Shown here one piece after another: positions 529 to 64,000 of a DNA stretch of 64,000 nucleotides. Both the position numbers and the translations under genes were made by a program. The stretch comes from Ipomoea triloba. Its lineage: Eukaryota; Streptophyta; Magnoliopsida; Solanales; Convolvulaceae. Location of the stretch: positions 3,704,615 to 3,768,614 of the forward strand of contig NC_044931.1 in assembly GCF_003576645.1 (NCBI RefSeq). Direction: 5' to 3'. The notes below the pieces were generated by a model. It did no database searches, was not told where the DNA came from, and saw only the letters and a program-made list of their open reading frames with translations. The first letter of the stretch is position 1; each line of letters starts with the position of its first letter.

Positions 529-617
529 AAGGTTAGGCTTTTAAAAGATTGTAATGAAAGGCATGAGTTTAATAGAATGATCTCTTTTGCGATATCTTAT
601 CTTGATTATACCAACTT

Positions 618-1310
618 GGCAGTCTGTCTGCCTTTGAGTGAGTTAGGTTGAGATAACCTAAGTCTCATTTCGATCTCCGGATCCTTATGAGTTTGGCAGT
701 CTGTCTACCCTTGAGTGAGTTAGGTTGAGATAACCTAAGTCTCATTTCGATCTTCGGATCCGTATGAGTTTGGCAGTCTGTCTACCCTTGAGTAAGTTAG
801 GTTGAGATAACCTAAGTCTCATTTTGATCTTTGGATCCGTATGAGTTTGGCAGTCTGTCTGCCCTTGAGTGAGTTAGGTTGAGATAACCTAAGTCTCATT
901 TCGATCTCCGGATCCTTATGAGTCTGGCAGTCTGTCTGCCTTTGAGTAAGTTAGGTTGAGATAACCTAAGTCTCATTTCGATCTCCAGATCCTTATGAGT
1001 CTGGTAGTCTGTCTGCCTTTGAGTGAGTTAGGTTGAGATAACCTAAGTCTCATTTCGATCGCCGGATCCTTATGAGTCTGGCAGTCTGTCTGCCTTTGAG
1101 TAAGTTAGGTTGAGATAACCTAAGTCTCATTTCGATCTCCGGATCCTTATGAGTCTGGTAGTCTGTCTGCCTTTGAGTGAGTTAGGTTGAGATAACCTAA
1201 GTCTCATTTCGATCTCCGGATCCTTATGAGGTTGGCAGTCTGTCTGCCTTTTGAGTGAGTTGGGTTGAAATAACCTAGGTTCTAATGATCTTCGGATCGC
1301 CTTTGAGTTG
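618..1310. repeat. 77-bp tandem repeat array (9 units)
   Basis: Starts of the word GGCAGTCTGTCT (or a one-base variant) fall at 618, 695, 772, 849, 926, 1003, 1080, 1157 and 1234, an exact 77-bp period. Units differ by a few substitutions and the last is degenerate. Each unit contains the hairpin TTAGGTTgagatAACCTAA. The array lies just downstream of the Ty3/gypsy pol stop, in the position of a 3' untranslated region. Confidence 0.97.
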
Positions 1311-5554: not shown

Positions 5555-6126
5555 AAAACTGGAAAGGAAAGAGATTCATGAGTGAAGGATAAGATTTGAT
5601 CTTATCTCTCCAGCAAAGCCCCAGCAAAGCAAATCTCATCTGCAACAAAAAATCTTATCTTCAAAGATAAGATCCCCATCCTGACAGGGTCATGTCAGCG
5701 TTATCTTATCAGTTTGGCGTGTTGTATGAATTATTAGACAACTTTATTAAAAGGTAGCTTTACTTTATGTCAAGAAGGCCATCACACTTTGTCGGCCACA
5801 TGTATTGTAATAATTGTAAACAGCTGTATTGTATTTCGAGAACCATCCTTGATCCCTATAAAAGGAGGTTCAGGTTGCTTTGTAAGATATCGCAGTTTGA
5901 AATATAAAATTTCCCAGTTTGCAAAATATCATGAGTTTCTAAGTTTTTAGTTGAAGGTTTTGAATAGATTTATGGTTATGTTCCTGCTAAGTCTCAAGTA
6001 ATCTCTAACATGTAGAGAGGTTAGGAAGTGGTTCGAGAGTCTTGTTGTCATGCCCCGGAGAGGCTTTTAGTTTTCTCTCACCTTTGGTCCTGATTCTCCA
6101 CTGCTTTTAGAGACTCCCCGATTTGG
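5555..6126 (+). mobile_element. Petuvirus-like endogenous pararetrovirus fragment
   Basis: This segment matches 35457-36016 of the full-length element with scattered differences. It covers the last codons of the viral ORF, the 3' non-coding region, the TATA promoter (TATAAAA at 5857-5863) and the leader up to the primer-binding site, where it stops (GATTTGG, then LTR sequence GGGTGAATAG). It differs from the full copy by substitutions and a short CAAAGCCCCAG duplication near 5619, so it is an independent, older-looking integrant. It interrupts the family-1 LTR between GATAGGGTGG and GGGTGAATAGAC. Confidence 0.93.
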
Positions 6127-27459: not shown

Positions 27460-28782
27460 TTATGGAATTCCCCGTTTGCCTTCTTTCTCAACATTTGCCT
27501 TCCCCGTTTTGGCTTTTTCACCATCGAATCTCAAAGCAATCTCGCCCGTGCCCACATCAATCCGGGAACGGCACGTCGCCAAAAACGGTCTACCAAGAAT
27601 CAATGAGCCAAAGGAGTCATCTCGACCCATCTCACACATAATGAAGTTGACCGGCACAAGAAAATCGCCAATCTTAACAAGCACGTCCTCCACCAAACAT
27701 CTTGGATGCCGAGTGGTACTATCAGCTAGGTGAAGGGTGAGCCTTGTTAGCTTCAAACAAGGCAAATTCAACTCTTCAAACAAACTCAAGGACATCAAGT
27801 TAATGGAGGCTCCAAGATCGGCAAGAGCCTTAGGAAATTCTATGTTCTTGATAGAACACGGAACTACGAAAGCTCTCGGGTCACCATTCTTTATGGAGAA
27901 ATTCTCTTTGCCAAGACACGCATAGTCATCAAAGGTATCATTCTCAAACAAATCACGACATTGAGCATCATAAAAGAACTTTTGCATAAATGCATGAAAT
28001 GTACCTTTCCTTCCTTTTCGGGGTAATTGATTCGTGCTTAGAAAGCACGGTCTCTTCGCCTTCACTCCCGAGATCACAAGAGGTGATCTCCTCATGGTTC
28101 TCCTTCACATTTCCTTCACGGCTACAAGAGGTAGCCTTGCTTTCTCCTTCAAATTTTTGAACTCCACAAGAGGCATTCTCAATCATATCTTCAAGGTCTT
28201 GACTACAAGAGGTAGTCTTTTCCACATCCTTCTCCTTCTTTCTCTTCTCACAAGCACATATCCCGCATATGATTTTCATTGGATCACATCCCTCATGGCT
28301 CTCCTCTATCGCGGCTACGGCACTCACTCCCCTTCGGATTATTTTCAGTGTTGCTCGGAAGTTGACCATAATGTCTATCTGACATCAATTTGAACATTTG
28401 AGAGATTTGATTCTCTATGGTCTTGAGGGTAGCTTTGGACTCTTGTAGTAGGCCCGATATCTCTTGACGGATTTCTTGGGTAATCTCTTGCTTGAGATTA
28501 GCTTGATCATTTTTTAGCTCCATGATGGTCCTTAACAATCTTTCGTCCACTTCTCTTATATCATCTCTTCTTTGTTGAGGATGTTCCAATTGGGAGTTGA
28601 AGTTTGGTCTATAGTGAGACATTTGAGATCCATGCCCTTGATGTGGGCCATAAGCAATTCCATCTTGGTTTTCCATGACCATAGGTGGGTTTTCCACCTT
28701 GGTTATAGTTTTGCCTCCCTTGGAAACCTCCGTTGTGATTCCATCCATCACCTTGCTTCCATCCTTGGTTTTGACCTTGATT
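27460..28782 (-). pseudogene. Athila-like gag C-terminus and protease
   Basis: The right end encodes the Asn/Gly/Gln-rich gag tail (NQGQNQGWKQGDGWNHNGG) that is cut by the pararetrovirus at 28782. After a frame change a helical segment follows (DERLLRTIMELKNDQANLKQ). A retropepsin-like domain lies at 27460-28095: FPKALADLGASINLMSLSLF, with ADLGAS in place of the usual DxGAS core of Athila proteases, and SLILGRPFLATCRSRIDV. Several frame changes break the polyprotein. Confidence 0.85.
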
Positions 28783-28906
28783 CTAACATGTAGAGAAGTT
28801 AGGAAGTGGTTTGAGAGTCTTGTTGTCATGCCCCGGAGAGGCTTTTAGTTTTCTCTCACCTTTGGTCCTAATTCTCCACTGTTTTTAGAGACTCCCCGAT
28901 TTGGTA
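28782..28906 (+). repeat. Left terminal redundancy of the pararetrovirus
   Basis: 125 bp of leader sequence identical to 35894-36018. It precedes the primer site, so the integrated molecule carries slightly more than one genome length. Confidence 0.97.
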
Positions 28907-28914
28907 TCAGAGCC
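28902..28914 (+). promoter_or_regulatory. Primer-binding site for initiator tRNA-Met
   Basis: TGGTATCAGAGCC, complementary to the 3' end of plant initiator tRNA-Met and used by Caulimoviridae for minus-strand priming. The right end of the integrant and the fragment at 6126 both stop at this site. Confidence 0.95.
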
Positions 28915-28954
28915 AGCCATATCTCTTTATTCAAAACCTTCATATTTCCCAAAT

Positions 28955-31900
28955 ATGTCTTCGTCTTCAGCTTCTACATCCACATCTATTGTACCTAGCC
29001 GTTCTTCATTTTCATTAGAAAAACCTCATTTCAAAAAATCTCTCTCTTCTAAGATGGATTATCTCTATGAGATAAATTATCTTAAAGAGGACCAAAAAAT
29101 AGAAGAAACCCACCTGCCCCTTCTGAATCCATACTCTGCTTTCAATAAAAGAAACCAATCCAATTTTCTGGTTAAATCCCTTAAAGCTATTTACCAGAAA
29201 AGGTCTTTAGTTCCTAAAGAATACATCTCAGCCTCAGCCATGAGCAGATGTCCCATATATTCCACCCACCAAGAACAGTTCATTACTCTTGAAATCCCTG
29301 ATGAATTCCTGGCCATTTGGAGAAGAGAGGGATATACCCATATCCACTTTGGAGCAATCCGTTTTGCCATAACCTATCATGGCAGAAAGGGTCAACCCGT
29401 AGTTGCCAAGCTATGTCTCCTTGATTCCAGGTACTTAGAGTACCAACATGCATTGATAGCCACCATGGAAGTCACACTTGATTCTGGCACTGTCTGTGCT
29501 ACTGTTTACCCAAATTTTAACGTATCCTTAGAAGATCCACATCTTCTAGATATGTTTAAAATCCAAATCCATATTGTTGGAGCTAAGCATGCTGAGCAAG
29601 ATGCTATTGAAGCCACTGTCCACTACCAGACGTCTTATCGATTGCAAGACCATGCTTTCGATATGAAAATTCCAGGAGGAGGAGAAGCTCTCATCCTAGT
29701 CACTGATGAACAGAGAAATGTTACCTGCACTAAGGTTCCCAGGAGATGTACAAAAGAGGAGTTGATCCAAGTTATCCCTGACACTTGGATATCCAACTAT
29801 GAGAAGCTGCACCAGAACAGAAGGCCAATCGAATCCAACGAGGCAACCATCAGCAGGCGAAAAGATGGTACCGTTGGAATCTCATTCAATCATGCTCATC
29901 TAAAAAGAACAGAATTTCTACCATCCATCAATATGGTAGAAGAGGCTAGAGAAAGACAAGAGGAGCATGTCCAGGAGATCCTTGACTATGACCCAGACGA
30001 TGATGATGCAAAACCAGTTTTCCTTGGTTACGGAAAAACAGGAATGAGTGAAATTGTTCATTCGTTCGACCAATTTGGTAAACCAGTTTTCTGGTTTAAG
30101 GATCCCATCTCAAATCACTGTTTCTTTGATTTGTGTGAAGATGATTGTAAGCAATGCTACCCAACAAAGGAGCCACAGAGGAGACCCAGCTGCAAGCCCT
30201 CTGGAAGGAGAAGATCCAGAAGTAAGGATGATAGTGATGATGAAGATCCGCCGTCACCACCACCTGTGCCCCTGCAAAGAAAAAAGAAAGCTCTTAAGTG
30301 CTATGAGCAAGAGTACTTAAGAAAGGAGCCCACAATAGTACCAGCTTCACCAGCCATCCCAGCAATGGTGATCTCAGAGTCCTATGAGGAAGACTTTCCC
30401 CCTTTGGAAAGTTTTCAGCGAGGAGGTTGTATGCATGCACCAAAGATCCCAGCTCCTAATGAAGTATTACCAACAGGCCAGTTAAGAGGACAACCATCCA
30501 TTGAGCAGACTTTAAACTGGCAAACGGAGAACGCCTTAGCTCAAAACCGCACCCTCAAATCAATTTCCAACAATCTTGTTGAGCTAAGCCACAAATCTGG
30601 AGAATACTATTCAAAGATTGACTCAAGGATCCAGATTTTGGAGAAAAGATTGGAGCAGATCCCTTTTGAGAGACCTTCTTATGGTCAATCCCTTCAAGCC
30701 CATTTTCAGTACCAAGCCAACGAAACTGCTTCTATCCGGAGCATGATAGATCAGTTGAGATCCGAGATCAGGCCCAAACAACCTTACCAACCCAATTTGT
30801 TTGAAACACCCCAAAAATACCCAGCTACCTCTACTCCAACACCATTTTACCAAACCAGTTCCTTAACAAGTTCGTCGTTCCAGTCTGGAAACCCTATGTT
30901 TCCTCCTACAGACTCTTCCATTCTAGATGAGTACCATAGGAGAAATAAGCCTAAACAAAAGAATCCACAACCCCCACCACAACCAACTTTGCCTTTACCC
31001 ACATCTCAAGCCCAACCTGATTCTCAAACAAGTTTGTTCTCTGCTTGGAAAATTAGAAATCCATCTCACCCTTTACACCAGCAAGTTTTTAGACCTTTCA
31101 CCATTTCAGAACAAACTACCACTCCGTCCCAGCCAATTATATCCTCAAAATCAAATGACCTGTACCCTCCACCAAATACAACCCCAAATACAACCCAAAT
31201 GATGCTCCATGAAACAATCACAGATAAGGATCTTTTTGATTCTGTTATCAAAGGTCCAGACCCACCTGAGAGAAATCTACCAGTCATTGAAGCTTATAGT
31301 ACTGGAGAAATATCAGAAGAATCTGGCTACCAATCTGAAGCAACTCAGTCAGAATCAGAAGGATATACAGATCCAGAAGGAGAAGATTCCGAGGAGTCGG
31401 AAAACCCTGCATTTATGGCAGATCCGGCAGAATCATCAACTGGTGGATACACAACTCAACAACCTGCTGATCAACCAATGGGTCATACAGAGGAAGAATA
31501 CTTTGGTGTTGAAAATGCCACGGAAATGGTGATGCACAAAGGAGTAAATTATCAATTCTTTACAATTGATGATTTATCACCAGAAAAGTGGGGAGAGAAG
31601 TTTGCTGAGTTCCACACATGGATGACTACTAGGAATCTAGTAGAACGAGATACTTTCAAAATCCTGATGGAATTTACAGCAAAGTTCACCGGAATTCTTA
31701 AAGATTGGTGGTCTAAAGCAGATGGGGCATTCAAGATGATGTTCTCAGGACTACCTCTCCAGGAAGCCGTTTCAATGATTTACTTCATATTTCTGGGTAA
31801 ACATGAGGATGAAGTAGAACAGAAGAGAACAGAGTTTTTCAGAATGAAGTGCCTGTCTTATGAGAAAAGGCACTTAGAGGAACACTTCAAAAGGATGACA

Positions 31901-34900
31901 AAAGTTTTCTATTTTCTGGGATTTGACAACAATCTCAAGCAAGCTTTTGTTTCATCCTTACCACCCCTGCTGGCAGACAGTACAGATCAACTTATCAAAA
32001 AGAATCATGGATCCATAACACATCTTTCAACTGGGCAGATTAGGCAAGCAATATTTGAAAGCCTAGACAATATTTGCCAGATCCACAACAAGTTCCAGAC
32101 CTTGAGAAAGCATGAATCAATTCTTTCCAAAGCATGCCAGAAGCCAAATCTCATAATAGGATCCTCATGCAATGGAGTGTGTGGAGACAAACCCAGAGTA
32201 AGAAAGAGAAATTTCACTCGCTTCAGGAAGAATCCTCAAAACAACAGGAGGATCGGATGGAAGCCAAGGAGGAGATATTTCAGAAAATCCCAGAACCAGA
32301 AAGCACAACCAAAAAAGAGAGGAAATAAAGCATCTAACAAATGCTTTGTTTGTGGAAAGCCAGGACACTATGCCAAAGATTGCAAGGAGAAGCAAGCGGC
32401 TAAAATGATATCGGAAGTCATGTCTCTTATTGATGACGATATCGCCGAAGAAGACCTGGATGGCTATCTCAGCCCAAAAGACGAACCTTCAGCAGAAACA
32501 ATCTTTTCCATAGAAGATGAAGTTCCGGAAGAAGATTTTATCTCATACAACTTTGGGATAAAAGAAGATGAAGAGTTCAAGGCACCCCATGTGAAAGTAC
32601 AGATCAAACACCGGTCAAGCAAGCCATTCGATGCCATAGCCCTTGTTGATACTGGAGCTCAGTTCTCAATGATGAACCCAAAGCTGTTACCTCAAGAGGC
32701 ATGGAGACCATCCCAGAAACGTCTTACATCAGCATCTGGAGATGATTTTGATGCAGGATTAGAGACGAAGGAACCATTGGAGATTAGCATACTTCCTAAC
32801 TGCAAGATCCAAATTCATGTTCTTGGATGTGGCCTTCCAAGAAGAGATTTGCTATTAGGATTTGATGCTTTCAAGATGATGAAGGTATTGGTTCAATCAC
32901 GAGGAATTAGCAAAGGCCCCTACTTCAAGCCCTATGAAGAAGATTACAGAATGTGGCAACTCAACTTCATGGATACCATCACCCAGATCAAGCAACAATT
33001 GGTGGAGCAATTATGTGCAGATTCTCATGACGAATTCATGAAGAAACACAGTAAGCCCCTATGGACCAGAGAAGAGTTCTTTATTGAACTTCCATTCAAA
33101 GAAGGAAAGGTAATCAACCCCACCAAAGCCAGCCACTCAGGAATGAATCCTCAACATCTCAAAATGGCGGTTCAAGAGTGTAAGGAGTTGCAGAAGTTAG
33201 GATTAATCACAGAATCCAAGTCCTCATGGGCATGTGAAGCATTCTATGTGAACAAGCGAGCAGAACAAGCAAGGGGAAAATTACGACTTGTTATCAACTA
33301 TCAACCCTTGAATCAATGTCTCAAAGATGTCAAATTTCCATTACCAAGAAGATCTATGATGTTCTCATATCTCCCAGGAGCCCAATGGTTTTCAAAGTTC
33401 GATCTCAAAGCAGGATTTTGGCAGATAGGAATCAAGCCAGAAGAAAGATACAAGACAGCCTTTTGTATCCCAGGATATCATCTTGAATGGAAGGTAATGC
33501 CTTTTGGTCTCAAAATTGCACCCAGTGAATTCCAGAAAGTGATGACCAAGATCTTTGAGCCAATTCTTGACAAAGCCCTCATTTACATCGATGACATCTT
33601 ACTATTCAGTAAGACCATGGAAGAACACATCCAGCTGATCAAACAATTCATGGAGATATGCCAAAAATTTGGAATCATGTTATCCGAAAAGAAGATGTTA
33701 CTAGCCCAGCAGAAGATCCAGTTTTTAGGCATGGATATTGACCAGGGAAAGTTTCAACCAGGAAGGCATATTGCTCAGGAGTTACTCAAATTTCCTGATG
33801 AAAACCTCACAAAGCAGCAAGTTCAACAGTTTCTTGGTATAATTAATTATATCCGAGATTTTGTTCCCAACATAGCCCCTCATGTTAGCACTCTCACCAA
33901 GATGTTGAAGAAGTCACCACCAAAATGGAGCATAGAACAAACCAAGGCAATCCGATGGATGAAGGAGCACACCAAGGAATTACCACCATTGCACATTCCA
34001 GCAGGTGAAGGACTCAGAATTCTACAAACAGATGCCAGTGATTACTATTGGGGAGCAATACTCCTACAGGAAGTCAAAGGAAAGAGGCTTGTTTGCGGCT
34101 ACTCCAGTGGTAGATTCAAAGATGCAGAACTTCATTACCACTCCACTTATAAAGAGATTTTAGCCGTGAAAAATGGAATTAAAAAATTTAATTTTCATTT
34201 GATCGGTTATAAGTTTCTTATTGAGTTAGACATGTCAGCTTTTCCAAAAATGTTGCAGTTCAAGAGGAAAGAAATTCCACAAGCTCAAGCTCTAAGATGG
34301 CAACAATGGTTTTCTAGATACAACTATGATGTTCGCCATATTCCAGGAAAGAAGAATGTGGTTGCAGACTTTTTATCCAGACCACAGCAAGTTCCTCAAC
34401 TCCAGTTCCAGTCCAAGATCTATGAGGTCTATATGTTCAATGAAGGAAGTTCCAGCCAGAGCACTTCATCAAATGCAGATTTTCCACCAGACATTGATGT
34501 CAACCAGTTCCCATGGAGCCATGAATACCTTGAAGAAAGAAGAACAGATTGGGAAGTCAGATTATTCAGATACTATGGAGGTCATATGCTACAACCATAT
34601 GGTATTCACCCTAAATATCCATTTGCTCAAATCTTTATTGCTCAAGTTCAAGATTGGCCAGAAGAGTTAAATTGGATATTTTGGTATTTATGCCATGAAT
34701 ATCATATTTTAATGGAGTTCCACAGGCCTAGTTTAAGAAAAGAGTTAGATCTTTCTGTTGAGAAAGATTTAATAAAATTCTTAACTTGGTTTTATCCATT
34801 AAAATACTGGAAGAAGTTATGCCAAGATGGTCCAGAATTTTTCACAGTTCATCTGCATAGGGAAGTCACAGCATGGGTATCCAGATTTTTAGAAGGACAT

Positions 34901-35494
34901 GCAGAACCATTTATGAAGATTTATGAGCAGCACATGGAATCTGTCATAGTCCGAGAAGAAGACTATCCAGAATTTCAGAGGTACATTTTCGCCCAGAACA
35001 AGGTCATTCCAAAAGAAATTTGGCCCAGAGAAGGGATTCAGCCAGATGTGAGACAAGATGATGAGATCTACCATGAAAGGATCAAGTCAGCAAAAAACCA
35101 GTACTACTATGAGCTACACCAGACCCAGAAGGAAGATATCTGGTCACAAGATCCTTGGAACCTTGATGATATAGATTCAGTGCTTGAAGAAGTCGAAAAG
35201 ATTGAGAAAGCTTATGCTCAAAAGTCTCAAAAGAAAAGGTCAGAACACAAGAGCCAGTGGAACAAGGATGTTTGGAGAACGAAGAGAAGGCAATCTGGTA
35301 TGGATAGGCAAGAATGGGTTAACCACATGGGTTACCCCAGCTACTCTGGCTACTCCACAGAAAGCGACACAGCATCAGACGAAGACTCCGTAATGGATCT
35401 TCAATTTCATGGAGAATGGATGGTCATGAAGACAAAGCAACCAGATTGGAACCCACAAAACTGGAAAGGAAAGAGATTCATGAGTGAAGGATAA
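28955..35494 (+). CDS. Pararetrovirus polyprotein (MP-CP-PR-RT-RH), intact
   Basis: An uninterrupted frame of 2,179 codons starts at the first ATG (28955, MSSSSASTSTS); the frame is open further upstream but has no earlier ATG. Domains in order: movement protein (about 90-250; RCPIYSTHQEQF, YPNFNVSLEDPHL); a Cys/His cluster (about 386-401; HCFFDLCEDDCKQC); Pro/Ser-rich linker; capsid region (about 850-1100); zinc knuckle CFVCGKPGHYAKDC (about 1129); aspartic protease VDTGAQ (about 1230); reverse transcriptase with FDLKAGFWQIGI and YIDDILLF (about 1400-1600); RNase H with LQTDASDYYWGA and TYKEILAV (about 1690-1810). The last 370 residues match no domain I know. The key catalytic Asp residues are present. 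The polyprotein would be cut by its own protease; virions, movement and reverse transcription are cytoplasmic functions in the family. No nonsense codon or frameshift is visible. Confidence 0.95.
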   Translation: MSSSSASTSTSIVPSRSSFSLEKPHFKKSLSSKMDYLYEINYLKEDQKIEETHLPLLNPYSAFNKRNQSNFLVKSLKAIYQKRSLVPKEYISASAMSRCPIYSTHQEQFITLEIPDEFLAIWRREGYTHIHFGAIRFAITYHGRKGQPVVAKLCLLDSRYLEYQHALIATMEVTLDSGTVCATVYPNFNVSLEDPHLLDMFKIQIHIVGAKHAEQDAIEATVHYQTSYRLQDHAFDMKIPGGGEALILVTDEQRNVTCTKVPRRCTKEELIQVIPDTWISNYEKLHQNRRPIESNEATISRRKDGTVGISFNHAHLKRTEFLPSINMVEEARERQEEHVQEILDYDPDDDDAKPVFLGYGKTGMSEIVHSFDQFGKPVFWFKDPISNHCFFDLCEDDCKQCYPTKEPQRRPSCKPSGRRRSRSKDDSDDEDPPSPPPVPLQRKKKALKCYEQEYLRKEPTIVPASPAIPAMVISESYEEDFPPLESFQRGGCMHAPKIPAPNEVLPTGQLRGQPSIEQTLNWQTENALAQNRTLKSISNNLVELSHKSGEYYSKIDSRIQILEKRLEQIPFERPSYGQSLQAHFQYQANETASIRSMIDQLRSEIRPKQPYQPNLFETPQKYPATSTPTPFYQTSSLTSSSFQSGNPMFPPTDSSILDEYHRRNKPKQKNPQPPPQPTLPLPTSQAQPDSQTSLFSAWKIRNPSHPLHQQVFRPFTISEQTTTPSQPIISSKSNDLYPPPNTTPNTTQMMLHETITDKDLFDSVIKGPDPPERNLPVIEAYSTGEISEESGYQSEATQSESEGYTDPEGEDSEESENPAFMADPAESSTGGYTTQQPADQPMGHTEEEYFGVENATEMVMHKGVNYQFFTIDDLSPEKWGEKFAEFHTWMTTRNLVERDTFKILMEFTAKFTGILKDWWSKADGAFKMMFSGLPLQEAVSMIYFIFLGKHEDEVEQKRTEFFRMKCLSYEKRHLEEHFKRMTKVFYFLGFDNNLKQAFVSSLPPLLADSTDQLIKKNHGSITHLSTGQIRQAIFESLDNICQIHNKFQTLRKHESILSKACQKPNLIIGSSCNGVCGDKPRVRKRNFTRFRKNPQNNRRIGWKPRRRYFRKSQNQKAQPKKRGNKASNKCFVCGKPGHYAKDCKEKQAAKMISEVMSLIDDDIAEEDLDGYLSPKDEPSAETIFSIEDEVPEEDFISYNFGIKEDEEFKAPHVKVQIKHRSSKPFDAIALVDTGAQFSMMNPKLLPQEAWRPSQKRLTSASGDDFDAGLETKEPLEISILPNCKIQIHVLGCGLPRRDLLLGFDAFKMMKVLVQSRGISKGPYFKPYEEDYRMWQLNFMDTITQIKQQLVEQLCADSHDEFMKKHSKPLWTREEFFIELPFKEGKVINPTKASHSGMNPQHLKMAVQECKELQKLGLITESKSSWACEAFYVNKRAEQARGKLRLVINYQPLNQCLKDVKFPLPRRSMMFSYLPGAQWFSKFDLKAGFWQIGIKPEERYKTAFCIPGYHLEWKVMPFGLKIAPSEFQKVMTKIFEPILDKALIYIDDILLFSKTMEEHIQLIKQFMEICQKFGIMLSEKKMLLAQQKIQFLGMDIDQGKFQPGRHIAQELLKFPDENLTKQQVQQFLGIINYIRDFVPNIAPHVSTLTKMLKKSPPKWSIEQTKAIRWMKEHTKELPPLHIPAGEGLRILQTDASDYYWGAILLQEVKGKRLVCGYSSGRFKDAELHYHSTYKEILAVKNGIKKFNFHLIGYKFLIELDMSAFPKMLQFKRKEIPQAQALRWQQWFSRYNYDVRHIPGKKNVVADFLSRPQQVPQLQFQSKIYEVYMFNEGSSSQSTSSNADFPPDIDVNQFPWSHEYLEERRTDWEVRLFRYYGGHMLQPYGIHPKYPFAQIFIAQVQDWPEELNWIFWYLCHEYHILMEFHRPSLRKELDLSVEKDLIKFLTWFYPLKYWKKLCQDGPEFFTVHLHREVTAWVSRFLEGHAEPFMKIYEQHMESVIVREEDYPEFQRYIFAQNKVIPKEIWPREGIQPDVRQDDEIYHERIKSAKNQYYYELHQTQKEDIWSQDPWNLDDIDSVLEEVEKIEKAYAQKSQKKRSEHKSQWNKDVWRTKRRQSGMDRQEWVNHMGYPSYSGYSTESDTASDEDSVMDLQFHGEWMVMKTKQPDWNPQNWKGKRFMSEG

Positions 35495-35747
35495 GATTTG
35501 ATCTTATCTCTCCAGCAAGGCAAATCTCATCTGCAACAAAAAATCTTATCTTCAAGGATAAGATCCCCGTCCTGACAGGGTCATGTCAGCGTTATCTTAT
35601 CAGTTTGGCGTGTTGTATGAATTATTAGACAACTTTATTAAAAGGTAGCTTTACTTTATGTCAAGAAGGCCATCACACTTTGTCGGCCACATGTATTGTA
35701 ATAGTTGTAAACAGCTGTATTGTATTTCAAGAACCATCCTTGATCCC

Positions 35748-35754
35748 TATAAAA
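35748..35754 (+). promoter_or_regulatory. TATA box of the pararetroviral pregenomic RNA promoter
   Basis: CCCTATAAAAG lies about 250 bp downstream of the ORF stop and upstream of the leader, matching the position of caulimovirid pregenomic promoters. It is conserved in the fragment copy at 5857-5863. Confidence 0.8.
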
Positions 35755-35893
35755 GAAGGTTCAGTTTGCTTTGTAAAATATCGCAGTTTGAAATATAAAA
35801 TTCCCAGTTTGCAAAATATCATGAGTTTCTAAGTTTTTTTTTGAAGGTTTTGAATAGATTTATGGTTACGTTCCTGCTAAGTCTCAAGTAATC

Positions 35894-36018
35894 TCTAACA
35901 TGTAGAGAAGTTAGGAAGTGGTTTGAGAGTCTTGTTGTCATGCCCCGGAGAGGCTTTTAGTTTTCTCTCACCTTTGGTCCTAATTCTCCACTGTTTTTAG
36001 AGACTCCCCGATTTGGTA
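35894..36018 (+). repeat. Right terminal redundancy of the pararetrovirus
   Basis: Identical to 28782-28906. It ends within GATTTGGTA, the first bases of the primer site, then resumes Athila gag sequence. Confidence 0.97.
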
Positions 36019-36138
36019 GTTCACTTGTCTTTGATATTCCACCGCCTCCACATACTCTGATGCGGAAGGTGATGTACAAGCATTTGTGTCATGAGGTCCA
36101 CCGCATATGTTGCAATAAAGTGCTAATGCCATGCAAGG
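36019..36138 (-). pseudogene. Athila-like gag zinc-finger segment
   Basis: The minus strand reads CNICGGPHDTNACTSPSASE then YVEAVEYQRQVNY, a CX2CX4HX4C knuckle of Athila-type gag. It is trapped between the solo LTR (36139) and the pararetrovirus (36018). Confidence 0.85.
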
Positions 36139-42759: not shown

Positions 42760-42858
42760 AAGTTCTCTGATCGATATAAACCTTTGTTTATATTGCCTAG
42801 AGATCCTTCTTTGAAAAATCCTTTAAAAGTTTTCAAAGCACGAGATAATTCTTCTAAT

Positions 42859-45096
42859 ATGGATAGCATGTTGTCGAGACATCTTCTCTTTGATCTTAGC
42901 AGGTTCGATGACTGGAAAACACGCATGCTTGCGTATCTATCAGCCCTCCATGATGAGATGGCCGAAGTTATAACATCTGGACCAGTCAAGATCATGATGG
43001 TAAACACGACTGCTGAGCAAACCAGAGATACACCAAAGTATGTCCCCAAACCTAGGGAAGAATGGACAAGTGATGATAGGAAGAGAAACAACTTGGACAA
43101 CATTGCCAAGGATATTCTCTTCAGAGCTATAGACGAAACCATCTTTCCAAAAGTAAGAAAGTGCAAAACGGCGAAAGAGGTATGGGATACTTTGATGTTA
43201 ATTGGTGAAGGTGACGAACAGGAGAAGGAGAACAAGCTCACCGTGGCCATGAAGAAGTTCGAGGACTTCAAGATGAAGCCAGGGGAAAGCATCGACAGCA
43301 TGGAATCTCGTTTCATGAACCTATCAATAGAGATCAGTGATCTCGAGAAAGAGATTCCACAAAAAGAGCTAAACCTGAAGGTCTTACGAGGCCTTACCAA
43401 GGAGTGGGAAATGAAGGTGATCACAATGCGTGATCACAGGGATTTGAAGAACACCACAACCGACCAACTATTCAGAGATCTCAAAGCCTTCGAATTTGAG
43501 ATGTTTCCAAGAGATGAGGACGTGGTGGACAGACGGAATGTGGCACTGGTTGCGGACCAACCAACCACCTCCTCAAGGTCAGATCCTAATCCCACTGATT
43601 TTTTATCTGACGAACAGTTTGCTTTCTTCATAAGAAAATTCAGGAAGTTCATGAAGAAGACACCGGAAAGCAATACAAGTTCACCTTCCTCCTCAAGAAG
43701 GAAAAATGAGAAATACACATCCAGAGGAATGGAGGAAGAAGATCAAGGTCTATGCTACAACTGCAGGAGACCGGGGCACTTCAAGGCTGACTGTCCTTAC
43801 CCTAAGGTAAGCAAGTATCAAGGCCTAGAATGTAGGAACTCCAGGAGAAAGGAGGAACCTAAAGAGAAGCCAGCACAAAGTGGCTTCAAGGGAGATACAA
43901 AGAAACATCTGCGCAGAAAGGCGCTTGTTGCTGAGGAACTCGAGAGAACAATCGAGGAGTCCGAGACGTCGAGCTCCAGTGAAAGCAGCAGCAGCTCAGA
44001 GGATGAGAGGGGGCTCATCTGCTTATACACCGAGGAAGAAGAGAATCAATGCCTAATGGCCATTGACAATGAGGTAACCTCTACTTCCACATCTCGCTGC
44101 TCTATTTCTACCTCTCGTTGTTCTTCTTTCAGAAGCGATGAAGATCCCTTTGAGATGCTTGAAACATTTAAAAGGGATCTCGCAGTCGCTAATAGCACTC
44201 ATGCCAAAATCAGGGAAGAAAACAGCAAGCTAACTGCTGAAAGAGATATGCTTAAGAACATCTCGAAAGAGAATTCAGAGCTAACTCTCAAAGTAAGTGA
44301 GTTAGAAGCTAAAGTAATCCTACTGACTGAAGAGTGCAAAGCTCGAGAGACCAGAGAGCTTAATCTTAGAAAGGTCATAGCATCATACACTAATTCCTCC
44401 AAAGCTATGGAGAAAATGGTGGATGATTACAGACCAGCAAATGACAGAACCGGTCTCGGGTTTCGTCGGAACAGTCTCTCGAGAGATAAGCAGACCAATG
44501 GTTTGGGAACTTCAAGAAATGGAGGATCTCAACCCAAACCAAATAAAGGTCATAAAGGACCAACAGAAAAGACCAGGGTAGCTATTCATAAACCGTCCCT
44601 ATACACCAGAAATGGAAAGTATAGGAAAGCTACGAAGAATGGCCGGGTAAACAATATCGAGAGATCACCTTGCTATCTCTCGCAAGGCCATTCCAAGTAC
44701 AAAAAGAGCTACATTCCATATAATGCGCCTCAAGGCAAATATGGAAGGTCTGAGATCCACATAGTTAGGAACTCACGGATGGAGAAAGGCATACTCTATC
44801 TATCTAGTGAGAATTGGTCATCGAATCACAATTTCTGGAAGAAACCTCACTTTCAGCAATTTCACATGACCAAACAGCGTATGAAAGGCATGGTGCATAA
44901 GCCAATCGAAAAGTCTATACCTAAGTTGATTTATGCACCAAAGAGGCCCAAAACATTTGCTAGCATTCCTTATGATTATCAAACGTACAATGGCTACATT
45001 GCGCCTAGGCCTGGAATAATGGGCATAAGGTATAAATGGATGCCTAAACTCACTAACCCACCAGGACCCAAAGTTTGGGTACCTAAACTTGCTTAA
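42859..45096 (+). CDS. Sirevirus A Gag
   Basis: 745 aa from ATG 42859 (MDSMLSRHLLFDLSRFDDW); the frame is open upstream without ATG. Residues about 5-200 form a UBN2-type copia Gag domain (WDTLMLIGEGDEQEKENKL, YSLxxLRGL-like KVLRGLTKEWEMKV). A CCHC knuckle CYNCRRPGHFKADC lies near residue 298. It is followed by Ser/Glu-rich and coiled-coil segments (SELEAKVILLTEECKARE) and a basic tail ending GPKVWVPKLA, a usual Sirevirus Gag end. The stop TAA is at 45094. Gag packages the RNA into virus-like particles. No internal stop is seen. Pol starts in the -1 frame just beyond. Confidence 0.93.
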   Translation: MDSMLSRHLLFDLSRFDDWKTRMLAYLSALHDEMAEVITSGPVKIMMVNTTAEQTRDTPKYVPKPREEWTSDDRKRNNLDNIAKDILFRAIDETIFPKVRKCKTAKEVWDTLMLIGEGDEQEKENKLTVAMKKFEDFKMKPGESIDSMESRFMNLSIEISDLEKEIPQKELNLKVLRGLTKEWEMKVITMRDHRDLKNTTTDQLFRDLKAFEFEMFPRDEDVVDRRNVALVADQPTTSSRSDPNPTDFLSDEQFAFFIRKFRKFMKKTPESNTSSPSSSRRKNEKYTSRGMEEEDQGLCYNCRRPGHFKADCPYPKVSKYQGLECRNSRRKEEPKEKPAQSGFKGDTKKHLRRKALVAEELERTIEESETSSSSESSSSSEDERGLICLYTEEEENQCLMAIDNEVTSTSTSRCSISTSRCSSFRSDEDPFEMLETFKRDLAVANSTHAKIREENSKLTAERDMLKNISKENSELTLKVSELEAKVILLTEECKARETRELNLRKVIASYTNSSKAMEKMVDDYRPANDRTGLGFRRNSLSRDKQTNGLGTSRNGGSQPKPNKGHKGPTEKTRVAIHKPSLYTRNGKYRKATKNGRVNNIERSPCYLSQGHSKYKKSYIPYNAPQGKYGRSEIHIVRNSRMEKGILYLSSENWSSNHNFWKKPHFQQFHMTKQRMKGMVHKPIEKSIPKLIYAPKRPKTFASIPYDYQTYNGYIAPRPGIMGIRYKWMPKLTNPPGPKVWVPKLA

Positions 45097-45101
45097 CTGC
45101 C

Positions 45102-48100
45102 TTGCAGGACACCAGGGACGTGTGGTTCATTGACAGTGGATGTTCGAGACATATGACGGGAAATCTAACACTGCTAGAGAACATCCAACCTATCGAAGGT
45201 CCCTTGGTGACATTTGGCGACAACAAGAAGAAGGGACGCACAAAAGCTGTTGGTGAAATTCAAAAGAATGAGCTGGTTATTAAGGGGGTATCTTACGTTG
45301 AAGGGCTCAAGTTCAATCTCCTTAGTACAAGCCAGTTCTGTGACAAAGGCTACAAGGTTGTCTTCACCAAAAGCAAATGTCAGATTATGAGCGAGGAATC
45401 TCTCGAAGTCGTCTTGGAAGCAGCAAGGAAAGGAAACATGTACATAGTGGATTGGAGATCTGCAAAACCATCCCTATGTATGCTAGCAAGAAGCAAGGAA
45501 GATTTATGCTGGGATTGGCATAGTAAGCTTAGTCATCTGAACTTCAAGACTATCAACAAGCTTACTAAGAGGAACCTAGTGGAAGGACTGCCCAAAGTGA
45601 CGTTTCGAAAGGATAAAATTTGTGAGGCATGTCAACGTTGCAAACAGATCAAATCCTCCTTCAAGAGCAAAGCCGAGACATCATCCACTAGACCATTAAG
45701 TCTTCTTCACATGGACTTATTTGGCCCAGTGGATCCACCCAGCATAAAGAGAAAGAAGTACACTCTTGTGGTAGTAGATGACTACACAAGATTCACATGG
45801 ACCGTGTTCTTAACCAAGAAAAGTGAGACAAAAATTGCCCTGCCAAATCTCTTGAAGCAAGTTCAAGTTGAAAAGGATGTCTCGATACTAAAGATCCGGT
45901 CAGATCAAGGTGGAGAGTTCNNNNNNNNNNNNNNNNNNNNNNNNNNNNNNNNNNNNNNNNNNNNNNNNNNNNNNNNNNNNNNNNNNNNNNNNNNNNNNNN
46001 NNNNNNNNNNNNNNNNNNNNNNNGGAGAGTTCGTTAATCAAGTAATCGAGAGCTACTGCAACGAGAACGGGATTCATCATCAACTGTCAGCTGCTCGAAC
46101 TCCTCAACAAAATGGGGTTGCTGAAAGAAGAAACAGAACTCTCAAGGAAGCTGCAAGAACCATGCTCTCGCAAGCCAACATAGCACAAGGATTTTGGGCA
46201 GAAGCAATCAACACAGCATGCTACACCCANCAAATGCTATATCCACAACAATGGAAAGGCTCAACTAAGAACCTTTGAAGAAAAGGCAGATGATGGAGTA
46301 TTTCTGGGATACTCATCGACAAGCAAAGCATTCAGAGTCTTCAACAAACGGAGTTTGGTGGTTGAAGAGTCCTTACATGTTACCTTTGATGAAAGGGCAT
46401 CGACAGATCAACCATCAAAGACAACGGAAGCAGCTGAGGAAGATCAGCCACAGTCTATCGAGAGATCAAACTTACCTCTCGAAGACAAGCAGTCGATAGT
46501 TCGAGACGTAGCAGAACTCTAGTCAGATTCAGATGATGAAGAATCTACCAAGAAGAAAGCACCTGACTCAGTTGATCCAATCCAGATCATAGATGTTCAA
46601 ACCACATCTCAACCTTCAATGGAAGTATCAACTGAGGAGCCACAACCCGACCTAAGATGGCTGAGAAGTCACCCTGCTGATCAAGTGATTGGAAATGTAC
46701 GTGACAGAGTTCGAACCAGATCAGCATACAGAGAAAGCATGTTTGCTTGCTTTCTATCTCAAATAGAGCCTAAGGTGATCGATGAGGCTCTATGTGATCC
46801 AGATTGGGTGCAAGCCATGCAATAGGAACTTCATCAGTTTGAGCGGAACGATGTTTGGGAACTAGTTCCGAGACCTCATCATCAAAATGTCATTGGTACA
46901 AAGTGGGTTTTCAGAAACAAGATGAATGAGGATGGAGTTATTGTTAGGAACAAGGCCAGACTTGTTGCCAAAGGCTATTGTCAGGAGGAAGGAATAGATT
47001 TTGATGAAACCTTCGCTCCAGTGGCACGTCTCGAAGCCATACGCATCTTTCTCGCATATGCCGCCTTCAAAGACTTTAAGGTATATCAAATGGATGTCAA
47101 GAGCGCTTTTCTGAACGGACTTCTCGAAGAAGAGGTGTACGTTGAACAACCTCCGGGTTTCTTGAAGGACGTGGGAGCTGACAAAGTATACAAATTAAAG
47201 AAGGCACTTTACGGCTTAAAACAAGCTCCGAGAGCTTGGTATGATACCTTATCCTCTTTTCTACTTCAGTGTGGGTTCACCAAAGGCCTAGTGGACAAAA
47301 CATTGTTTAGAATTAAGGATGAGGATCACATCTTATTGGTGCAAATCTATGTGGACGATATCATTTTTGGAAGCACCAATCCAGACTTGTGCGAGAAGTT
47401 CTCCAGATTGATGAAAGGGAAGTTCGAGATGAGCATGATGGGAGAACTAAACTACTTCCTTGGATTACAAGTGCGACAGCTTAAGGAAGGCATCTTCATC
47501 AATCAGGAGAAATACACCAAGGATCTGCTCAGAAAATACAATATAGAAGGGAAATCCTCAGTCAAAGTACCCATGGGAACCTCTCTACGTATCGATGTCG
47601 ACAGTGAAGGTCGAGAGGTCGATCAGACTACATATCGAGGTATCATCGGATCTCTTCTCTATTTAACTGCTAGTAGACCAGATATATCCTTTGCAGTAGG
47701 TGTATGTGCTAGATTTCAGGCAAGTCCTAAGGAAAGTCACTTAAATGCATCTAAAAAGATCCTTAGATATCTCAAAGGTACGCAAAGTGTTGGACTTTGG
47801 TATTCGAGAGGTGGATCTTTCGAACTTATGGGTTATTCAGATGCGGACTTTGCCGGTTGTAAAATAGATCGAAAGAGCACATCAGGGACATGTCAGTTTC
47901 TAGGTGGAAGACTTGTCTCATGGTTTAGCAAGAAACAGCATTCGATAGCTACAAGCACCGCTGAGGCAAAGTACGTAGCAGCTGGAAGTTGCTGTGCTCA
48001 GGTTTTGTGGATGAAGCAACAATTACTGGATTATGGTGTTGAATGTAAAGAGGTTAAGATTATGTGTGATAACACAAGTGCCATAGCTATCACTCAGAAT

Positions 48101-48292
48101 CCAGTATTACATTCCAGGACGAAACACATTGATATCAAATATCACTTCATCCGAGACCATGTTGAGAAAAAGGACATAACTTTGGAATATGTTGCGACGG
48201 AGGAGCAACTTGCAGATATTTTCACAAAAGCGTTAAGTGAGAATAGATTCTCTCAACTAAGGTTAGAATTGGGAATGATAGAATTGGGATAA
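45102..48292 (+). pseudogene. Sirevirus A Pol (PR-IN-RT-RH), defective
   Basis: Begins [18 protein letters not shown] (protease DSG). It continues with the GAG-pre-integrase HHCC region (HSKLSHLNF...CEACQRC), the integrase core ([26 protein letters not shown]), RT ([22 protein letters not shown]) and RNase H (DADFAG). Real damage: TAG 46520-46522 (Gln in copy B), TAG 46823-46825 (Glu in copy B), and AEAKY for AEAEY in RNase H. Doubtful damage: 103 N at 45921-46023 flanked by the same GGAGAGTTC, and one N at 46230 where 96 bp present in copy B are missing. Both may be assembly faults. The copy would need help from an intact relative. Confidence 0.93.
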
Positions 48293-60806: not shown

Positions 60807-63800
60807 TCAACCCAACTCTATCATTCCCAATTCTAACCTTAGTTGAGAGAATCTATTTTCACATAACGCTTTTGTGAAAATATCTGCTAGTTGCTCCTCC
60901 GTTGCAACATATTCCAAAGTGATGTCCTTTTTCTCAACGTGGTCTCGGATGAAGTGATACTTAATATCAATATGCTTTGTTCTGGAGTGTAACACTGGGT
61001 TGTGGGTGATGGCAATAGCACTTGTATTGTCACACATAATTTTAACCTCCTTACACTCAACACCATAATCCATTAGCTGTTGCTTCATCCATAAGATCTG
61101 AGCACAACAACTTCCAGCTGCTACATATTCTGCCTCAGCAGTGCTTGTAGCTATCGAATGTTGTTTCTTGCTAAACCATGAGACAAGTCTTCCACCTAGA
61201 AACTGACATGTCCCTGATGTGCTCTTTCGATCTATCTTACAACCGGCAAAGTCCGCATCTGAATAACCCATAAGTTCGAAAGATCCACCTTTCGAATACC
61301 AGAGCCCAACACTCTGCGTACCCTTTAGATATCTAAGAATCTTTTTGGATGCATTTAGGTGACTTTCCTTAGGACTTGCCTGAAATCTAGCACATACACC
61401 TACTGCAAAGGATATGTCTGGTCTACTTGCAGTTAAATAAAGAAGAGATCCGATGATACCTCGATAAGTGGTTTGATCGACCTCTCGACCTTCGCTGTCG
61501 ACATCGATACGTAGAGAGGTTCCCATAGGTACTTTGACTGAGGATTTCCCTTCTATGTTGTATTTCCTGAGCAGATCCTTGGTGTATTTCTCCTGGTTGA
61601 TGAAGATACCTTCCTTAAGCTGTCTCACTTGTAGTCCAAGGAAGTAGTTGAGCTCTCCCATCATGCTCATCTCGAACTTTCCTTTCATCAAACTGGAGAA
61701 CTTCTCGCACAAGTCTGGATTGGTGCTACCAAAAATGATATCGTCCACATAGATTTGCACCAATAAGATGTGATCCCCATCCTTAATCCTAAACAATGTT
61801 TTGTCCACTAGGCCTTTGGTGAACCCACACTGAAGTAGAAAAGAGGATAAGGTATCGTACCAAGCTCTTGGAGCTTGTTTTAAGCCGTAGAGTGCCTTCT
61901 TCAACTTGTATACTTTGTCAGCTCCTACGTCCTTCAAGAAACCCGGAGGTTGTTCAACGTACACCTCTTCTTCGAGAAGTCCGTTCAGAAAAGCGCTCTT
62001 GACATCCATTTGATATACCTTAAAGTCTTTGAAGGCGGCATATGCGAGAAAGATGCGTATGGCTTCGAGACGTGCCACTGGAGCGAAGGTTTCATCAAAA
62101 TCTATTCCTTCCTCCTGACAGTAGCCTTTGGCAACAAGTCTGGCCTTGTTCCTAACAATAACTCCATCCTCATTCATCTTGTTTCTGAAAACCCACTTTG
62201 TACCAATGACATTCTGATGATGAGGTCTCGGAACTAGTTCCCAAACGTCGTTCCTCTCGAACTGATGAAGTTCCTCTTGCATTGCTTGCACCCAATCTGC
62301 GTCGCTTAGAGCCTCATCGATCACCTTAGGCTCTATTTGAGATAGAAAACAAGCAAACATGCTTTCTCTGTAAGCTGATCTGGTTCGAACTCTGTCACGT
62401 ACATCTCCGATCACTTGATCAGCAGGGTGATTTCTCAGCCATCTTAGGTCGGGTTGCGGCTCCTCAGTTGATACTTCCATTGAAGGTTGAGATATGGGTT
62501 GAACATCTATGATCTGGTTTTGATCAACTGAGTCAGGCGCTTTCTTCTTGGTAGACTCTTCATCATCTGATTCTGACTGGAGTTCTGCTACGTCTCGAAC
62601 TATCGACTGCTTGTCTTCGAGAGGTAAGTTTGATCTCTCGATAGACTCTGGCTGATCTTCCTCAGCAGCTTCCGTTGTCTTTGATGGTTGATCTGTTGAT
62701 GCCCTTTCATCAAAGGTAACATGTATGGACTCTTCAACCACCAAACTCCGCTTGTTGAAGACTCTGAGTGCTTTGCTTGTCGATGAGTATCCCAGAAATA
62801 CTCCATCATCTGCCTTTTCTTCAAAAGTTCTTCGTTGAGTCTTCCCATTGTTGTGAATATAGCATTTGCACCCGAATGAGTGGAAGTGGCTTACATTCGG
62901 TTTTCTTCCATTCCACAACTCATATGGAGTCTTTCCAACTCCTTTTACTATCAAGGACCGATTTTGGGTGTAGCACGCTGTGTTGATTGCTTCTGCCCAA
63001 AATCCTTGTGATATGTTGGCTTGCGAGAGCATGGTCCTTGCGGCTTCTTTGAGAGTTCTGTTCCTTCTTTCAGCAACCCCGTTTTGTTGAGGTGTTCGAG
63101 CAGCTGATAGTTGATGATGAATTCCGTTCTCGTTGCAGTAGCTCTCGATTACTTGATTAACGAACTCTCCACCTTGATCTGACCGGATCTTTAGTATCGA
63201 GACTTCCTTTTCAACTTGAACTTGTTTCAAGAGATTTGGTAGGGCAATTTTTGTCTCGCTTTTCTTGGTTAAGAACACGGTCCAAGTGAATCTTGTGTAG
63301 TCATCCACTACCACAAGAGTGTACTTCTTTCCCTTTATGCTGGGTGGATCCACTGGGCCAAATAAGTCCATGTGAAGAAGACTTAATGGTCTAGTGGATG
63401 ATGTATCGGCTTTGCTCTTGAAAGAGGATTTGATCTGTTTGCAACGTTGACATGCCTCACAGATTTTATCCTTTCGAAACGTCACTTTGGGCAGTCCTTC
63501 CACTAAGTTCCTCTTAGTAAGCTTGTTGATAGTCTTGAAGTTCAGATGACTAAGCTTACTATGCCAATCCCAGCATAAATCTTCCTTGCTCCTTGCTAGC
63601 ATACATAGGGATGGTTTTGCAGACCTCCAATCCACTATGTACATGTTTCCTTTCCTTGCTGCTTCCAAGACGACTTCGAGAGATTCCTCGTTCATAATCT
63701 GACATTTGCTTTTGGTGAAGACAACTTTGTGGCCCTTGTCACAGAACTGGCTTGTACTAAGGAGATTGAACTTGAGCCCCTCAACGTAGGACACTCCTTT

Positions 63801-64000
63801 AATAACCAGCTCATTCTTTTGGATTTCACCAACAGCTCTTGTGCGCCCCTTCTTCTCGTTGTCGCCAAATGTCACCAAGGGACCTTCGATAGGTTGGATG
63901 TTCTCAAGCAGTGTTAGATTTCCAGTCATATGTCTCGAACATCCACTGTCAATGAACCACACGTCCCTGGTGTCCTGCAAGGAAATCAAGCAAGTTTAGG
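60807..64000 (-). CDS. Sirevirus B Pol (PR-IN-RT-RH), intact in window
   Basis: 1,060 codons with no stop, from [19 protein letters not shown] (protease, DSG near residue 14) to [11 protein letters not shown]. Integrase zinc-binding region near 150-185; core residues in LHMDLFGPV (about 206), SDQGGEF (about 271) and [12 protein letters not shown] with YVDDIIFGS (about 750). RNase H with DADFAG (about 913) and AEAEY (about 953). All these catalytic motifs are complete, unlike copy A. Gag lies beyond the right edge; its last codons (KLA then TGA) are visible at 63985-64000 region, in the +1 frame relative to pol. This pol could serve both copies in trans. Confidence 0.95.

What the first reader, a model, noticed from the sequence alone, without database searches (positions are those of the whole stretch)
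28783..36018. Intact, apparently very young petuvirus-like endogenous pararetrovirus
Seen: one uninterrupted 2,179-codon ORF with MP, capsid zinc knuckle, PR, RT and RNase H motifs, primer site, TATA box, and 125-bp terminal repeats with zero differences. Known: most endogenous caulimovirids are fragmented and mutated; Petunia vein clearing virus is one of few with near-complete copies. Inference: the integration is recent, and the locus may still be transcribed or could give rise to episomal DNA.
Basis: partly seen in the sequence, partly recalled or inferred. Interest (0 to 1): 0.92.

Follow-up and report, generated by a model that had tools for sequence, protein, structure and literature searches.

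The report
Young petuvirus copies in satellite hotspots
A morning-glory genome (likely Ipomoea triloba) carries over a hundred mostly near-identical copies or pieces of an integrated plant virus, 84% of those counted on placed chromosomes lying in about 1% of that sequence; most of the downstream ends that could be read stop at the site where viral DNA copying is predicted to start, so the copies likely arose when DNA breaks were sealed with freshly copied viral DNA.

Summary
In detail: a 2,179-codon open frame (28955-35494) with movement protein, zinc knuckle, reverse transcriptase and RNase H, flanked by identical 125-bp repeats. It is an endogenous petuvirus-like pararetrovirus, but not a singular one. 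The genome (anchored share matches Ipomoea triloba) holds at least 113 movement-protein matches of this family, and a 2022 paper already lists 22 identical petuvirus RT sequences in I. triloba. New here: (i) of 22 resolved right ends in a set chosen by other viral DNA, 15 fall within a 10-nt window at the tRNA-Met primer site, while left ends scatter; (ii) 76 of 90 anchored copies lie in 13 clusters covering 1.15% of the chromosomes, against 0 of 33 for two other caulimovirid families, and 11 of 42 junction flanks are a 431-bp satellite; (iii) variants shared between copies are mostly synonymous, so they arose in a replicating virus; (iv) the window copy replaced about 22 bp of a retrotransposon without target duplication. 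That this copy may itself be transcribed is weakly supported: its promoter lies downstream of the ORF. The repeats date it loosely (<1.7 My); ORF and family suggest 0.3-0.45 My at an assumed rate. The assembly is short-read based, so intactness is provisional.

The parts
28782..28906 (+). left copy of the 125-bp terminal overlap (part of the leader upstream of the primer site)
   Evidence: left viral end, flank is retrotransposon DNA
28902..28918 (+). putative tRNA-Met primer binding site TGGTATCAGAGCCAGCC
   Evidence: sequence; tRNA assignment recalled
28955..35494 (+). single polyprotein ORF, 2,179 codons plus stop
29285..29656 (+). movement protein domain PF01107
   Evidence: 3.1e-15
32336..32389 (+). 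CCHC zinc knuckle PF00098, taken as part of the coat protein region
   Evidence: 1.8e-6
32585..32887 (+). aspartic protease-like stretch PF00077 (E 0.0016, below cut-off)
33260..33736 (+). reverse transcriptase PF00078
   Evidence: 2.7e-31
33926..34321 (+). RNase H PF17919/PF17917
35495..36018 (+). intergenic region; TATAAA at 35748 and 35794, i.e. promoter downstream of the ORF
35894..36018 (+). right copy of the 125-bp overlap, ending 5 nt into the primer site (TGG starts 36014)
27460..28781 (-). host LTR retrotransposon gag/protease, left flank of the insertion
   Evidence: protease matches below cut-off; empty-site paralogues
36019..36138 (-). same retrotransposon, right flank; about 22 bp of target missing between the two flanks, no target duplication
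5555..6126 (+). second, more diverged fragment of the same virus (equals 35457-36016, 95%), right end again inside the primer site

Best explanation
This is one copy of a recently active endogenous petuvirus-like family, and it likely arose when host end-joining repaired a chromosome break with a linear product of viral reverse transcription. Shown: the copy holds one viral unit plus 125 nt, its right end stops 5 nt into the primer-like site, it lacks about 22 bp that paralogues of its target retrotransposon keep, it made no target duplication, and most right ends that could be read elsewhere stop at the same place. Inferred: the right end is the start of the tRNA-primed minus strand; the scattered left ends mark how far minus-strand synthesis ran past that start; breaks in repeat-rich, partly satellite DNA supplied most of the target sites; tandem arrays came from concatemers or from recombination at existing copies. 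Inferred from the substitution pattern: the copies descend from several related, protein-constrained viral genomes rather than from duplication of one dead copy. A single copy like this one is predicted to give no complete pregenomic RNA, because its promoter lies behind its ORF.
For: Right ends, set chosen by ORF 3' DNA only (40 matches): 12 run straight on into a next unit, 6 abut N or were unread, 22 resolved; 15 of 22 at 36009-36018 (primer site starts 36014), 3 more at 35974, 36002 and 36002. A uniform spread over 800 nt gives P about 1e-22 (computed with 15 of 25, before three joins next to a single N were dropped). Left ends, set chosen by DNA 29250-29650 (40 matches): 12 tandem, 5 tandem with rearrangement, 2 N, 21 resolved: 12 at 35817-35995 and 9 at 28926-29131, none between 35662 and 35812. 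Empty site: the 22-bp segment is whole in 11 of the 12 paralogues aligned and missing in the window. Selection: variants shared by two or more loci are 48 synonymous, 21 non-synonymous, 0 stop (neutral expectation 0.266/0.689/0.045; P 1e-13); private ones 77/85/4. Clusters: 76 of 90 anchored MP copies in 13 RT-defined clusters of 5.1 Mb. Satellite: 11 of 42 junction flanks match a 431-bp tandem repeat that makes up about 0.2% of the assembly by a 15-mer count.
Against: 4 of 22 resolved right ends lie elsewhere (35478-35867), three of them virus-to-virus joins. A left-end group at 29044-29057 (L048, L137=L138, L140, L147) is not predicted by the model. Only the window insertion has an empty site; target duplications were not tested for the others. 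Six 6-kb samples between copies in clusters held no 431-bp satellite. The I. triloba assembly is Illumina with 5x PacBio gap filling (PMC6214957), and this one shows an artefact of exact 42-bp duplications, so some joins may be assembly errors and copies may be mosaics.
Confidence: 0.75

Rival explanations
1. The copies spread mainly inside the genome: one or a few integrations were multiplied by satellite amplification, unequal exchange and segmental duplication in heterochromatin, without repeated capture from replicating virus.
For: 76 of 90 anchored copies sit in 13 clusters; satellites amplify; some flanks recur exactly or nearly so (L137/L138, L089/L090, L057/L069).
Against: 42 junction flanks gave no pair matching at 30 or more of 40 positions (the known duplicates L090 and L138 were left out beforehand, and the L057/L069 pair, shifted by one base, escaped the test); variants shared between copies are under protein constraint; left ends differ from copy to copy.
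Confidence: 0.15
2. It moves as an LTR retrotransposon-like element with an integrase, its own or borrowed, and the repeats are short LTRs.
For: Terminal repeats; fixed right end at the base before the primer site as in U5; [quoted passage not shown]
Against: No integrase domain in five pieces; about 22 bp of target lost and no duplication; left ends vary over some 400 nt.
Confidence: 0.05
3. The apparent intactness and the perfect repeats are products of a short-read assembly that merged many near-identical copies.
For: Illumina assembly with 5x PacBio (PMC6214957, section seen); exact 42-bp duplications 28 times in 320 kb and never at units 38-41 or 43-46; the window lies on the 18-Mb contig C16, apparently the unplaced bin.
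Against: No N and no 42-bp duplication in the window element; the copy has its own flanks and in its 5' region differs from each of the 39 other listed matches.
Confidence: 0.15

Closest known systems
Petuvirus-05 / cluster100-8 of Ipomoea triloba (de Tomas and Vicient 2022, PMC9794742)
   Same: Same host by assembly statistics, petuvirus RT, 22 identical copies listed in Table 3 and 52 sequences in one Ipomoea species in Table 1 (abstract, passages and tables seen)
   Different: That paper treats RT domains; no sequence was at hand to prove identity; in the passages seen no ends, targets, satellites or selection of this cluster were described
Petunia vein clearing virus (genus Petuvirus) and its endogenous copies
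   Same: Single long ORF, 7.2-kb circle, quasi terminal repeat, head-to-tail arrays (PMC7496347, PMC10377300, passages)
   Different: Host; no episomal form known to me here; the window copy is a lone unit with promoter behind the ORF; sequence not compared, none at hand
Endogenous RTBV-like sequences of rice and tobacco TPVL (PMC526188, passages; Jakowitsch 1999 as cited there)
   Same: Ends gather at the strand discontinuities, taken as integration of a replication intermediate
   Different: Rice ends are flanked by AT repeats in 93%; here 1 of 42 flanks has (TA)n against 1.3% in control windows
Petuvirus hotspots at Fritillaria imperialis centromeres and pararetrovirus in citrus centromeric repeats (PMC10377300, passage)
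   Same: Pararetrovirus copies concentrated in a few repeat-rich places
   Different: Here the clusters come from an assembly with satellite junctions; centromere function untested

Membership tests
Petuvirus (Caulimoviridae) | single ORF in the order MP, coat zinc knuckle, protease, RT, RNase H | tested here: met
   the protease hit is below its Pfam cut-off
Petuvirus (Caulimoviridae) | circle of about 7.2 kb with tRNA-Met primer site | tested here: met
   repeat spacing 7,112; seamless tandem joins; tRNA label recalled
Petuvirus (Caulimoviridae) | RT-RNase H phylogeny within Petuvirus | tested here: inconclusive
   no named petuvirus sequence available, no tree built; best viral fold match, 54% identity, is unnamed; named caulimovirids among the 50 rows shown lie at 22-40%, the highest on short fragments; the published RT tree places the I. 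triloba cluster in Petuvirus
Petuvirus (Caulimoviridae) | virions or episomal DNA | not testable with these tools
   no reads or tissue
Florendovirus | second ORF besides the polyprotein | tested here: not met
   no second ORF of 150 aa or more beside it on the + strand of the unit; 524 nt follow the stop; ORF2 is mentioned in PMC4241990 passages, its role as a defining feature is recalled
Florendovirus | bias to (TA)n flanks | tested here: not met
   1 of 42 flanks, control 1.3%
LTR retrotransposon (Metaviridae) | integrase domain | tested here: not met
   no Pfam match in five pieces
LTR retrotransposon (Metaviridae) | target-site duplication | tested here: not met
   window insertion only

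The most novel reading that the evidence does not exclude
This petuvirus is drawn to centromeric chromatin: its reverse-transcribed DNA is delivered to, or trapped at, breaks in centromere-type satellite arrays, while two other caulimovirid families in the same nucleus are not, making it a virus that has repeatedly colonised the centromeres of its host.
Probability: 0.2. Interest if true: 0.8.

Novelty: new member of a known kind. Interest (0 to 1): 0.5.

Why it matters
How plant pararetroviruses, which lack an integrase, enter chromosomes is called speculative in a 2023 review (PMC10377300, section seen). A young family with many copies, ends that can be read almost to the base, an empty target site and two other virus families in the same genome as internal controls makes the replication-intermediate model and the question of target choice directly testable. 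Ipomoea triloba is a wild relative of sweetpotato, so diagnostics there should expect endogenous copies.

Tried and rejected
Dating by the 125-bp repeats: too short to be useful (bound 1.7 My at 7e-9; 0.8-4.8 My over three rates). A synonymous excess in the RT piece was set aside because most of those copies had been picked by protein identity; one search leaves that piece out. End positions alone were set aside as biased towards full matches; searches replaced them. Three right-end joins first counted as resolved (L068, L148, L152) abut a single N and were dropped. Hotspot intervals drawn by eye (78 of 90) were replaced by RT-only clusters with a fixed margin (76 of 90). A search of viral contigs for RT relatives found nothing. 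The fold search did not name the nearest virus (model mean pLDDT 69). Rfam found nothing in the window. A protein search with a Copia element gave an unnamed 93% match, then Cuscuta at 65%, consistent with Convolvulaceae; no Ipomoea name appears among the 120 of 7,901 listed. The first RT search shows no named exogenous virus among the 120 of 555 listed. A look for Ipomoea in a survey of centromeric tandem repeats gave no mention (PMC4053949), and the Petunia satellite paper (PMC10587573, passages) reports no link of satellites to pararetrovirus in what I saw.

Full report
WHAT IS THERE. The window carries a stop-free frame at 28901-35494; its first ATG is at 28955, giving 2,179 codons. Two 125-bp direct repeats at 28782-28906 and 35894-36018 are identical and 7,112 bp apart. 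Five pieces of the frame, searched apart, contain the caulimovirid movement protein, a CCHC knuckle, a weak aspartic protease match, reverse transcriptase and RNase H. The primer-like sequence starts at 28902, and its first five bases end the right repeat at 36014-36018. Two TATAAA boxes lie at 35748 and 35794, behind the ORF. The unit is therefore one viral circle (7,112 nt) plus 125 nt of overlap.

HOST. The window is G000:C16:3704615-3768614 in a 461,989,178-base assembly of 17 contigs. C16 is 18.35 Mb, which leaves about 443.6 Mb; Ipomoea triloba NCNSP0323 has 443.3 Mb anchored to 15 linkage groups, I. trifida 373.4 Mb (PMC6214957, section seen). Against this, the total of 462.0 Mb equals the figure that paper gives for I. 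trifida (457.8 for I. triloba); the anchored share decides for I. triloba, as do the 22 identical RT copies reported for it. The nearest named protein to a Copia element in the window is from Cuscuta, also Convolvulaceae (family membership of Cuscuta recalled). I take the host as I. triloba, likely but not proved, and C16 as the bin of unplaced scaffolds.

THE INSERTION. The flanks are part of an LTR retrotransposon on the minus strand. A query made of the two flanks finds 40 matches, among them paralogues that cross the join; 25 places were fetched. Twelve were aligned: 11 hold whole a 22-bp segment that the window lacks at the join, and L014 has a gap of its own there. So the virus replaced about 22 bp and no target duplication was made. 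This is the signature of end joining, not of an integrase.

A FAMILY, NOT A SINGLE COPY. The RT piece gives 159 matches (150 of 2,287 candidates scored); of the 150 listed I class 131 as petuvirus-type, 33 of them in the top score class at 100% protein identity, the window included. The Pfam MP model gives 150 matches (150 of 206 candidates scored), of which I class 113 as this type by score and matched range. These are lower bounds. De Tomas and Vicient (PMC9794742, tables and passages seen) list 22 identical petuvirus RT sequences in I. triloba; their sequences were not at hand, so identity with the present family is inferred. Of my ten paper searches, two paired Ipomoea with Caulimoviridae or pararetrovirus (5 and 18 papers); besides that paper, none of the titles or abstract beginnings listed describes this family. 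Subscription journals and preprints are not in that library.

ENDS. I read ends in two sets chosen without regard to where a copy stops; positions come from local alignments and may be off by a base or two. Set 1 (DNA 34950-35350, 40 full matches): 12 continue seamlessly into a next unit; 6 abut N or were unread (L068, L148, L150, L152, L153 and C16:2472569); 22 are resolved. Of the 22, 15 end at 36009-36018, three at 35974, 36002 and 36002, four elsewhere (35478, 35638, 35832, 35867). Twelve of the 22 are followed by host DNA, nine by other viral sequence, one (L062) by an unclear stretch. Set 2 (DNA 29250-29650, 40 matches): 12 tandem, 5 tandem with extra repeats or inversions, 2 N, 21 resolved; 12 left ends at 35817-35995 and 9 at 28926-29131, two of the 21 being duplicates of a neighbour's flank, and several followed by other viral sequence. 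None lies between 35662 and 35812, just behind the TATA boxes. Left ends further inside the viral genome could not be seen by this design; copies broken inside the ORF exist (for example L118, L120). The sharp right end at the base where tRNA-primed minus-strand DNA would begin, and the blurred left end within the leader, are what a linear or opened reverse-transcription product would leave. Ends at discontinuities were already proposed for rice and tobacco (PMC526188, passages); here they are resolved almost to the nucleotide in a young family. The window holds a second witness: a 572-bp fragment at 5555-6126 that again stops at 36016.

TARGETS. Thirteen RT clusters (three or more matches, 400-kb linkage, 100-kb margin) cover 5.1 Mb, 1.15% of the anchored sequence; 76 of 90 anchored MP copies lie in them. 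Because RT and MP often belong to the same insertion, this describes clustering and is not an independent test. Two other caulimovirid families in the same genome, with 20 and 13 anchored MP matches, have none there. Sixty-five host pieces next to or near viral ends were compared with one another; 18 form one family that is a tandem repeat of about 431 bp, and each of the 18 matches reference pieces of it directly, L045 only in the 88 bp next to its junction. Arrays lie at C3:13.25 Mb and C1:20.45-20.48 Mb beside petuvirus clusters, and at C1:18.02-18.08 Mb, where an otherwise isolated copy also sits. Of the 42 junction flanks, 11 belong to it; a 15-mer of it occurs 2,055 times, its reversed control never, about 0.2% of the assembly. 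Six 6-kb samples from clusters showed no such satellite, so it is only one of several settings. (TA)n flanks, typical of florendoviruses, occur in 1 of 42. Whether the satellite is centromeric is untested.

AGE AND SELECTION. Over 43,092 aligned coding bases from 63 loci, with the RT piece used for picking left out, differences from the window that recur in two or more loci are 48 synonymous, 21 non-synonymous and 0 stop, against 27/69/4.5% expected without constraint. They arose while the protein was needed, that is in a replicating virus; changes private to the window count among them and can only weaken the signal. Differences seen once are 77/85/4. Taking the shared set as the viral mix, 54% of these are neutral, 0.21% per site, and four stops are expected, as observed. 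At an assumed (recalled) 7e-9 per site and year this is 0.3 My on average (0.14-0.83 My over the rates tried); assembly errors make it an upper figure. The window copy alone: under 1.7 My from the repeats, under 0.45 My from its open frame, the latter with an assumed frameshift rate.

ACTIVITY. Nothing here shows transcription. In PVCV, head-to-tail copies allow a full transcript (PMC10377300, passage). The window copy is single and its promoter points away from its ORF. I do not single out any other copy.

CAUTIONS. The assembly behaves as a short-read one and carries an exact 42-bp duplication artefact, 28 cases in 320 kb of held sequence, none in the window. Joins next to a single N were not counted as resolved ends. 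Copy numbers are lower bounds because the tools score only part of the candidates.

Noticed in passing
window 5555-6126: A second petuvirus fragment in the same window, 95% identical to 35457-36016, ending inside the primer site.
   Followed up: partly
window 616-1277: A 77-bp tandem repeat, 8.6 copies, that also occurs (93%) at C14:11.225 Mb inside a petuvirus cluster (L159).
   Followed up: partly
L168 (G000:C4:11686900-11692899) and 23 MP places: A second endogenous caulimovirid family with separate coat and protease-RT-RNase H ORFs; none of its 20 anchored MP matches lies in the petuvirus clusters; two pairs are 9,292 and 9,298 bp apart. That the MP places and L168 are one family is inferred from RT and MP matches lying close together.
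   Followed up: partly
G000:C7:18779780, C10:12287581, C6:508398 and others: A third group of caulimovirid movement proteins, most over 100 bits, 14 places including weaker ones.
   Followed up: no
28 places in held loci, e.g. L163:1324, L160:4980: Exact head-to-tail duplications of exactly 42 bp and of no neighbouring length: probably an overlap artefact of the assembler.
   Followed up: yes
29044-29057 (element coordinates) in L048, L137, L138, L140, L147: A recurrent left breakpoint just after a pyrimidine-rich stretch, in at least four different flanks; not explained by the model.
   Followed up: no
G000:C11:18066194 and C11:18095781: Open frames of 10,263 and 9,701 aa reported around petuvirus RT and MP matches; perhaps runs of N read as open, not checked.
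   Followed up: no
window 42784-48289 and 60807-63989: Two Copia-type retrotransposons (RVT_2, integrase), the first interrupted by N.
   Followed up: no
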